Position numbers and translations under genes: made by a program. A stretch of 64,000 nucleotides of DNA, taken from NCBI RefSeq assembly GCF_011682235.2, contig NZ_CP076718.1, forward strand, positions 3,272,400 to 3,336,399, in the 5' to 3' direction. The stretch comes from Rhodocaloribacter litoris. GTDB lineage: Bacteria > Bacteroidota > Rhodothermia > Rhodothermales > ISCAR-4553. The notes below the pieces were generated by a model that was not told where the DNA came from, did no database searches, and saw only the letters and a list, made by a program, of their open reading frames with translations. Positions 40,639-42,278 of this stretch are shown here, piece after piece; positions within the stretch are counted from its first letter, which is position 1, and every line of letters begins with the position of its first letter.

Positions 40639-40787
40639 GGCACGAAAAGCTCTGGAGAGAGGAAGCCGGCCGGGGTGTCGCGGGGCCGGCAATCCCGGTG
40701 CGCCAGATCACATCGAAGTCCGATCCGGTTCGGCGGTTCCCGGGGTTGTTGAATGAAAAGAAAAGACGATTGAATCGGGACAGGGTC

Positions 40788-40930
40788 TTGACACTCCCAC
40801 GGCTCTGGGCACGTGAGATTCTTGCTTCATCGACAGTCGCCTTCGCTAACCGAGGCTAGCGCCGGTCTTACACCGTCTCCACAAGCTTTGCCGAACGAAA
40901 GGACGCGTAACGCGTCCGGTTCGGCTACGG
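40788..40930 (-). ncRNA. Putative omega RNA (reRNA) of TnpB
   Basis: In TnpB elements a guide RNA scaffold comes from the end of tnpB and the right end, and the guide is the flanking DNA. Here the tnpB stop (40827-40829) is followed by the hairpin 40794-40817 and TGTCAA, so the scaffold would end at 40788 and the guide would be copied from about 40768-40787 (minus strand). The 5' limit is not visible; 40930 is an estimate. Confidence 0.45.
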
Positions 40931-42047
40931 TCTGCCCGACCGCCAGAACGTTCTGTGCCGCGTTTATATCGCGGTCATGTTCCTCCCCGCAGCGAGGGCA
41001 CACCCATTTCCTCACATCGAGAGGGAGGGTTTCCATTGTGTAGTTACAACCCGAGCAGGTCTTGGAAGAGGGATACCACCGGTCGATTCGCACCAGCTGC
41101 TTGCAGTACAACGCCGCCTTGTACTCCAGCATCCCGACGAACGCGCTCCAACCGGCATCGCTGATGGCCCGGGCAAGGCTGTGGTTCTTGACCATGCCCC
41201 GGACGCAGAGCGATTCGGTGTAGATGGTGTCGTACCGGCGCACGAGCCGCGTCGAAAGCTGGTGCAGGAAATCCTGCCGCTGGTTCCTGACCTTCGCGTG
41301 CAGCTTCGCCACCTTCCGGCGCTGCTTGTGCCAGTTGGCGGATCCCTTCTGTTTGCGAGCGAGCCTTTTCTGCTCCAGAGCAAGACGATCCTGTGCACGC
41401 TTGAGGTGCTTTGGCCGTGTTACACGGCCCTTATTCCCGCTACGCCAGCCATCCGACGTGACGACCACATCCTTCAAGCCGAGGTCGATACCAACGCTGC
41501 GTTTGGTTCTCGGCAGCGGCTGATAATCCACCTCAACGACGAAGCTGATGTAGTACGTCCCGTCGGGCTCCTGAACCACCGTCAAGCTCGAAGGATCGCT
41601 CGGGAGCGGGCGGCTCCACCGAATCTTGAGCGGGGTACTCATCCTGGCGAGCTTCACGACGGGCTGCCCCGGCACTCCGCTGTCTCTGAGCGAGAAGCCG
41701 CGCCGGGTGTACGTGGCGCTCTGCCGGTGCTTCTTTGCCTTGAAGCGAGGAAACCGGGCGGTGCCCCGGAAGAACGCCGTGTAGGCTTTATCGAGATGTC
41801 GAAGGACCTGCTGAAGCGGAACGCTGGAGACTTCGCGAAGCCACGCATGATCGGGTTGCCGTTTTAGCTGTGTCAGCCGGCGATCCGTCTCAGCGTAGCC
41901 GATCTTCTCGCCTCGCTCGCGGAACGCATCGCGCTTCATTGCCAGCGCCCAGTTGTAGACGTACCGAACGCACCCGAACTGCCGGGCGAGCATCTGCCGC
42001 TGCTCGGCGTTGGGATGGAAGCGGTATCGGTAACGTAGGGTGGGCAT
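40827..42047 (-). CDS. tnpB: RNA-guided endonuclease TnpB (OrfB transposase family)
   Basis: A 406-residue TnpB that appears intact. N-terminal OrfB helix-turn-helix region (YRYRFHPNAEQRQMLARQFG, RYVYNWAL), RuvC-like nuclease with Asp188 in 'SVGIDLGLKD', Glu278 in 'YTESLCVRGM' and Asp360 in 'HDRDINAAQN', and a zinc finger with Cys331, Cys334 (CSGC), Cys350 and Cys353 (CPRC). All catalytic and zinc residues are present, so it should be an active RNA-guided nuclease that recognises the TTGAT-like motif next to the target. Start ATG 42047 is followed by the usual 'RYRYRF'. There is no tnpA beside it. Confidence 0.93.
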   Translation of the reverse strand: MPTLRYRYRFHPNAEQRQMLARQFGCVRYVYNWALAMKRDAFRERGEKIGYAETDRRLTQLKRQPDHAWLREVSSVPLQQVLRHLDKAYTAFFRGTARFPRFKAKKHRQSATYTRRGFSLRDSGVPGQPVVKLARMSTPLKIRWSRPLPSDPSSLTVVQEPDGTYYISFVVEVDYQPLPRTKRSVGIDLGLKDVVVTSDGWRSGNKGRVTRPKHLKRAQDRLALEQKRLARKQKGSANWHKQRRKVAKLHAKVRNQRQDFLHQLSTRLVRRYDTIYTESLCVRGMVKNHSLARAISDAGWSAFVGMLEYKAALYCKQLVRIDRWYPSSKTCSGCNYTMETLPLDVRKWVCPRCGEEHDRDINAAQNVLAVGQTVAEPDALRVLSFGKACGDGVRPALASVSEGDCR

Positions 42048-42278
42048 GTGGGCGTTGAATCTTTACGAGACATTCAGTGTCGTTGCGAAAGTTCCTGCTC
42101 TCAGACAGGAAGTTGTGCTTTGAGTTGAGGCGCATTCCTCCCACGTTGGGCCGCGTTACGCGGCCTTTAAAGCACGTGGGCTTCCTGCGCTCGCGGGTAT
42201 CAACTCTTTATCGTGAAAAAGTGACGGTTCCGTTCCGGCCGGACGGGTCGCATCGGGACGGGGCGGCGGCACGCCTGC

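What the first reader, a model, noticed from the sequence alone, without database searches (positions are those of the whole stretch)
40768..42203. Intact tnpB-only element with readable ends, TAM and predicted guide
All RuvC and zinc residues are intact, TTGAT abuts the left end, the left end is a nested palindrome, and the right end closes with a hairpin and TGTCAA. The guide should be 40768-40787 (minus strand), so the nuclease would cut the empty donor joint TTGAT next to that sequence. Lack of tnpA implies dependence on another element's transposase, or domestication.
Basis: partly seen in the sequence, partly recalled or inferred. Interest (0 to 1): 0.5.

Follow-up and report, generated by a model that had tools for sequence, protein, structure and literature searches.

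The report
TnpB-only transposon with misjudged left end
The sequence is an intact, transposase-less jumping element that carries an RNA-guided DNA-cutting gene; comparison with its sister copies shows that its left end and recognition motif were misread, and that it also carries three tiny palindromes that have spread through the same genome.

Summary
The element is real: a tnpB-only (IS1341-type, IS200/IS605 group) element, one of six full-length copies plus one 401-nt deleted copy in its 4.5 Mb genome. The left end and TAM do not: all seven copies match 14 nt further out, to 42212, where the flanking motif is (T/C)TCAC (here TTCAC, 42217-42213). TTGAT (42203-42199) lies inside the element and occurs in this copy only. 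Empty sites in relatives confirm the ends for two sister copies: an AhpD-like gene, and a parS pair whose interrupted member excision would restore. No empty site was found for the window copy. The genome has 18 TnpB-domain genes and no detectable Y1 transposase; intact copies show purifying selection (dN/dS 0.13-0.20); the right-end RNA shows strong covariation. Protein and RNA thus look like known TnpB systems; activity is inferred. The inner palindrome of the 'nested' left end belongs to a dispersed 17-bp palindrome family (59 sites in this genome) that makes in-frame, net 18-nt insertions; that is the most novel item here.

The parts
40788..42212 (-). Whole tnpB-only element, 1425 nt (corrected ends)
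   Evidence: Alignment of 6 full copies and 1 deleted copy; joint verified on sister copies by empty sites
42213..42217 (-). TTCAC, insertion-site motif and inferred TAM
   Evidence: (T/C)TCAC precedes the left end in 7 of 7 copies; CTCAC present in the empty site of L003 in G001
42199..42203 (-).
   Evidence: Alignment of copies
40827..42047 (-). tnpB, 406 aa, RuvC residues and zinc finger intact
40788..40889 (-). Right-end RNA scaffold (omegaRNA/reRNA), overlapping the 3' end of tnpB
   Evidence: 8 pairs over 17 sequences, 99.3% of cells paired, covariation score 0.742 against 0.243 in shuffles, 0 of 500 as high
40768..40787 (-). Flanking DNA that would be the 20-nt guide
   Evidence: Directly outside the exact right end; guide role inferred from ISDra2 (PMC8612924, passages read)
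42094..42212 (-). Left end, imperfect hairpin CCCACG...CGTGGG with a second palindrome in its loop
   Evidence: Single-strand DNA fold -26.3 kcal/mol, z -3.97; copy L006 has the plain hairpin without the inner palindrome
42149..42165 (.). 17-bp palindrome GGCCGCGTTACGCGGCC, member of the dispersed family
41413..41429 (.). 17-bp palindrome inside tnpB; part of a net 18-nt in-frame insertion coding KGRVTR
   Evidence: Absent from copies L003, L005, L006
40901..40917 (.). 17-bp palindrome near the C-terminus of tnpB, net 18-nt insertion
   Evidence: Absent from copies L002, L003, L006

Best explanation
This is an IS1341-type element of the IS200/IS605 group: a left-end hairpin, tnpB and a right end whose transcript serves as the guide RNA of the TnpB nuclease. 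It was inserted directly 3' of TTCAC, without target duplication, by a Y1 transposase supplied in trans that is no longer in this genome. The TnpB-RNA complex would recognise (T/C)TCAC followed by the 20 nt at 40787-40768, i.e. the empty site, and cut it, so that repair from an intact copy restores the element. Shown here: ends, insertion motif, copy family, empty sites of two sister copies, absence of a detectable Y1 transposase, low dN/dS, conserved RNA structure. Inferred: cleavage, guide use, past trans-mobilisation.
For: Seven copies share exact ends. Joined flanks of copy L003 align straight across the joint to G001, G020 and G003, and with a 2-nt alignment gap at or next to the joint to G006, G023 and G013, and restore an AhpD-like reading frame. 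Joined flanks of L002 restore TGTTTCACGTGAAACA; G003 has two such sites 37 bp apart as predicted, and matches in G003 and G017 cross the joint. Catalytic residues align with ISDra2 TnpB. dN/dS is 0.13-0.20 over 10 pairs of the 5 intact copies. Right-end RNA covariation. A 401-nt copy without tnpB has the same ends, as expected for trans-mobilisation. No Y1_Tnp in G000; 34 of 114 genomes of the order have one.
Against: No empty site was found for the window copy itself; G001 keeps only one flank. No cleavage or RNA data. The low dN/dS may reflect selection before the copies entered this genome, as they differ by dS 0.22-0.50. The single-sequence fold of the right-end RNA is not striking (z -1.87). 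The two inserted palindromes may impair this TnpB. The TAM is inferred from the insertion site and was not measured.
Confidence: 0.85

Rival explanations
1. One reading: left end at 42198, TAM TTGAT, as in ISDra2.
For: TTGAT is present at 42203-42199 minus and ISDra2 TnpB uses TTGAT (PMC8612924, abstract and passages); TnpB is related to ISDra2 TnpB.
Against: Homology of the other six copies runs 14 nt beyond it and none has TTGAT there; sister empty sites break after CTCAC and TTCAC.
Confidence: 0.03
2. A domesticated tnpB kept by the host for another role (for example gene regulation).
For: No Y1 transposase in the genome; dN/dS well below 1.
Against: Both ends are intact in six full copies at unrelated sites; one copy (L004) is frameshifted; relatives have empty sites; the same-family genome G001 has one weak TnpB match only.
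Confidence: 0.08
3. A decaying relic: ends still readable, protein no longer active because of the two inserted palindromes.
For: Two 18-nt insertions in this tnpB; one sister copy is frameshifted.
Against: The KGRVTR insertion is shared by L001, L002, L004 and the group B copy L026, falls where the ISDra2 alignment has a gap, and copies with it have dN/dS like those without.
Confidence: 0.2

Closest known systems
IS1341-type elements (tnpB only, IS200/IS605 group)
   Same: Only tnpB between IS-type ends; 1425 nt and 406 aa compare with 18 reported IS1341 elements (1252-1393 or 1512-2382 bp, TnpB 362-489 aa; PMC9956272, passages)
   Different: (T/C)TCAC insertion motif; here in a genome with no detectable Y1 transposase at all; carries dispersed 17-bp palindromes
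ISDra2 TnpB of Deinococcus radiodurans
   Same: Protein aligns over residues 7-371 (phmmer E 1.2e-72), same catalytic residues, right-end RNA
   Different: TAM TTCAC instead of TTGAT; no tnpA
RPE and intragenic REP palindromes (for the three 17-bp palindromes)
   Same: Dispersed palindromes inserted in unrelated genes, also DNA repair genes (PMC3733652, PMC10969869, passages)
   Different: Net insertion only 18 nt; 1-nt loop; nested inside each other; no GTAG or CGTC tag seen by eye; no Y1/RAYT gene in the genome

Membership tests
IS1341-type, IS200/IS605 group | TnpB protein with OrfB_IS605 and zinc domains | tested here: met
   PF01385, PF07282, PF12323 and NCBIfam guided_TnpB above cut-off
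IS1341-type, IS200/IS605 group | No tnpA in the element | tested here: met
   ORF list shows no room for one; no Y1_Tnp in the genome; serine recombinases were not searched genome-wide
IS1341-type, IS200/IS605 group | Subterminal hairpins at both ends | tested here: met
   Left-end DNA fold z -3.97; right-end terminal helix conserved with compensatory changes
IS1341-type, IS200/IS605 group | Insertion 3' of a fixed short motif without target duplication | tested here: met
   7 of 7 copies after (T/C)TCAC; empty sites for L003
IS1341-type, IS200/IS605 group | Mobilisation by a Y1 transposase in trans | not testable with these tools
   Only indirect: deleted copy L007 with the same ends
ISDra2-like element with TTGAT TAM | TTGAT directly 5' of the left end | tested here: not met
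   TTGAT is internal; TTCAC abuts the end
OMEGA TnpB RNA-guided nuclease | Structured right-end RNA with the guide at its 3' end | tested here: met
   Structure only: covariation, 0 of 500 shuffles as high; the guide itself is inferred; no Rfam family at gathering score
OMEGA TnpB RNA-guided nuclease | TAM-dependent cleavage | not testable with these tools
   Needs a biochemical assay
REP/RAYT palindromes (for the 17-bp palindromes) | Unpaired GTAG or CGTC tag at one end and, for GTAG types, a Y1 transposase | tested here: not met
   No common tag by eye in 37 sites; no Y1_Tnp in the genome
RPE (for the 17-bp palindromes) | Palindrome inserted in frame in coding genes, about 150 bp | tested here: inconclusive
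   In-frame insertion met; length 18 nt, not about 150

The most novel reading that the evidence does not exclude
The 17-bp palindromes that decorate this element are an undescribed class of minimal mobile insertion: a net 18-nt, frame-neutral unit that drops into hairpin loops (left ends of tnpB elements, and other copies of itself, several layers deep) and into genes such as recQ, and spreads without a recognisable transposase, perhaps through single-stranded hairpins, with tnpB elements and a prophage-like region as its main reservoirs.
Probability: 0.35. Interest if true: 0.7.

Novelty: new member of a known kind. Interest (0 to 1): 0.42.

Why it matters
The corrected TAM and joint make the guide prediction testable and warn that a TTGAT-like word beside a tnpB end should be checked against sister copies. 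A complete genome with 18 TnpB-domain genes, no detectable Y1 transposase and low dN/dS is a clean case for asking whether TnpB nucleases can maintain elements alone. The parS copy is a natural test case, since its excision would restore a chromosome-partitioning site. The 18-nt palindromes would, if confirmed, be among the smallest dispersed insertions in coding genes.

Tried and rejected
Rejected: TTGAT as TAM (contradicted by the copies). Not obtained: a clean empty site for the window copy in G001 (only the flank from 42297 on is kept, with another gene beyond). Tried without result: Rfam on the window (no family at gathering score). The genome-contig scan listed 80 loci, nearly all actinobacterial, at 41-47% identity; own or near-own records may be left out there. 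A second palindrome seen in right ends of family f13 (GAAGCGACAGCTTC) is not dispersed: 7 of 80 genomes, at most 3 copies each. Palindromes with arms of 8 or more are not enriched in the window in general (11 found, block shuffles mean 10.35); only this sequence family is. The pattern for the family was written after seeing it in tnpB elements, so its enrichment in them (16 of the 50 listed sites, 0.26 expected) is biased upwards; 9 of the 59 sites were not listed and not counted. Homology tests of insertions (five genes): the recQ-like gene is exact (6 aa missing in G001, the only non-self hit); the vWA-type protein mostly lacks 7 aa, the glycosyltransferase and DUF4175-like protein show gaps of varying size at the site; the integrase has one relative, G008, which carries the same insertion. 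The gene names in that test are from recall of sequence, not from a database call.

Literature on short in-frame palindromes: searches gave REP and RPE papers but no 18-nt nested family in the listings; this is not proof of absence, as most subscription papers are not held. Papers read in passages only: PMC8612924, PMC9956272, PMC3733652, PMC10969869; all others only as search listings.

Full report
What is there. The minus strand of 40827-42047 codes a 406-aa TnpB with three expected Pfam domains and the NCBIfam guided_TnpB model above cut-off. It aligns with ISDra2 TnpB of solved structure (E 1.2e-72), all three RuvC acids and the zinc-finger cysteines in register (which residues these are is from recall).

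Ends. The same genome holds five more full-length copies (82-89% identical) and a 401-nt deleted copy. On the left, homology does not stop at TTGAT. It runs on to GATAAA (GAGAAA or GTGAAA in other copies), and the five bases before it are TTCAC in four copies and CTCAC in three. The element is therefore 40788-42212, 1425 nt. One nucleotide of ambiguity remains because a G stands at both edges.

Empty sites. Joined at these ends, the flanks of copy L003 match the same-family genome G001 (83% identity) and five other genomes of the order across the joint. In the pairwise alignments the joint is crossed without a gap in G001, G020 and G003; in G006, G023 and G013, which are more diverged, a 2-nt alignment gap falls at the joint or one base after it. 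The join restores one reading frame that reads like an AhpD-type protein (named from its sequence, not from a database call). The flanks of copy L002 join to TGTTTCACGTGAAACA, the 16-bp parS palindrome (parS is named from recall). A second one follows 37 bp further, and G003 has such a pair at 37 bp; matches in G003 and G017 run across the joint. The window copy itself has no such proof: G001 keeps only the flank from 42297 on and continues with another gene.

A second subfamily. Five further tnpB copies with both ends (TnpB about 52% identical) lie between TTTAT on the left and GGGGGAGGCTCAA on the right, so the insertion motif differs between subfamilies with the same layout. A sixth (L011) has a left end after CTTAT but has lost its right end.

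Transposase. There are 18 matches to the TnpB zinc domain and no Y1_Tnp match in the genome (5 of 14 control genomes positive); 34 of 114 genomes of the order have one, G001 none. The deleted copy without tnpB but with both ends is what mobilisation in trans would leave. Serine transposases were not searched for.

Selection and RNA. Over 10 pairs of the five intact group A copies dN/dS is 0.13-0.20, over 10 pairs of five group B copies 0.12-0.17; copy L004 is frameshifted. The right-end RNA region was aligned for 17 tnpB elements, eight of this genome and nine of nine other genomes of the order (L026, L012, L013 and L132 were left out as near-duplicates or for insertions, L007 for its insertions, L135 because no right end was found). 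A helix of four pairs is kept in 17 of 17 sequences through two-sided changes, and there is a terminal helix. Together 99.3% of cells pair, covariation score 0.742 against 0.243 in shuffles, 0 of 500 as high, and no slid version comes near. The structure was predicted from the same alignment, which favours it somewhat. The single-sequence fold alone is unremarkable (z -1.87).

How it probably works. As established for ISDra2 (PMC8612924, abstract and passages read), TnpB would bind the right-end RNA whose 3' end is copied from the flank, here 40787-40768, and cut an empty site carrying the TAM, here inferred as (T/C)TCAC. Cutting the empty allele and copying the element back maintains it. All of this is inference for this copy. 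With no Y1 transposase now detectable, the copies could be held by TnpB alone until a transposase arrives.

The palindromes. With two more in tnpB (40901-40917, 41413-41429) it fits GGNCGNGTNACNCGNCC: 3 in the window against 0.03 expected, all three inside this element. The genome has 59 sites, the reversed control pattern 0. Among 60 genomes searched (G000 included), G008 has 6 sites and the other 58 have 0 or 1. Of the 50 listed sites, 16 lie in tnpB elements (0.26 expected, biased by how the pattern was found). Six lie in a 5-kb stretch with a frame that reads like a phage lysozyme (named from sequence). They behave as insertions: KGRVTR is present in TnpB of L001, L002 and L004 and missing in L003, L005, L006; the group B copy L026 has it at the same place and another beside its third RuvC acid. 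The recQ-like gene of G000 has six residues (RTRHAA) that G001 lacks exactly. Net length is 18 nt in tnpB and recQ, so the frame survives; in the other genes tested the gap size varies. Several are nested, palindrome within palindrome, in left-end loops. Known relatives in kind are RPE and intragenic REPs (PMC3733652, PMC10969869, passages read), which are longer, tagged or tied to Y1 enzymes. How an 18-nt unit spreads is unexplained.

Verdict. A well-documented tnpB-only element of a known kind whose left end and TAM need correction, in an unusual genomic setting, with a side observation that may be worth more than the finding.

Noticed in passing
window 40901-40917, 41413-41429, 42149-42165; G000 genome-wide: A dispersed 17-bp palindrome family (59 sites) that makes net 18-nt in-frame insertions in tnpB and a recQ-like gene, often nested within itself.
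   Followed up: partly
L002, G000:C1:2289518-2290924: A sister tnpB element sits inside a parS site, splitting TGTTTCAC from GTGAAACA; an intact parS lies 37 bp away once the flanks are joined.
   Followed up: partly
L026, G000:C1:1568762-1569904: A group B TnpB has the palindrome-coded KGRVTR between its third RuvC acid and the conserved NAA, which may inactivate it; a second insertion shares flanking bases with group A, suggesting short-patch gene conversion.
   Followed up: partly
L007, G000:C1:2667987-2668387: A 401-nt tnpB-less derivative with both ends of the element and several nested palindromes, a MITE-like relic.
   Followed up: partly
L183, G000:C1:550549-555739: Six palindromes within 5 kb, next to a frame that reads like a phage lysozyme.
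   Followed up: no
L012 and L013 right ends: An 18-nt palindromic insertion AGGCGATGTATGATCGCC in the guide-RNA scaffold of two group B elements, of another arm sequence but the same length.
   Followed up: no
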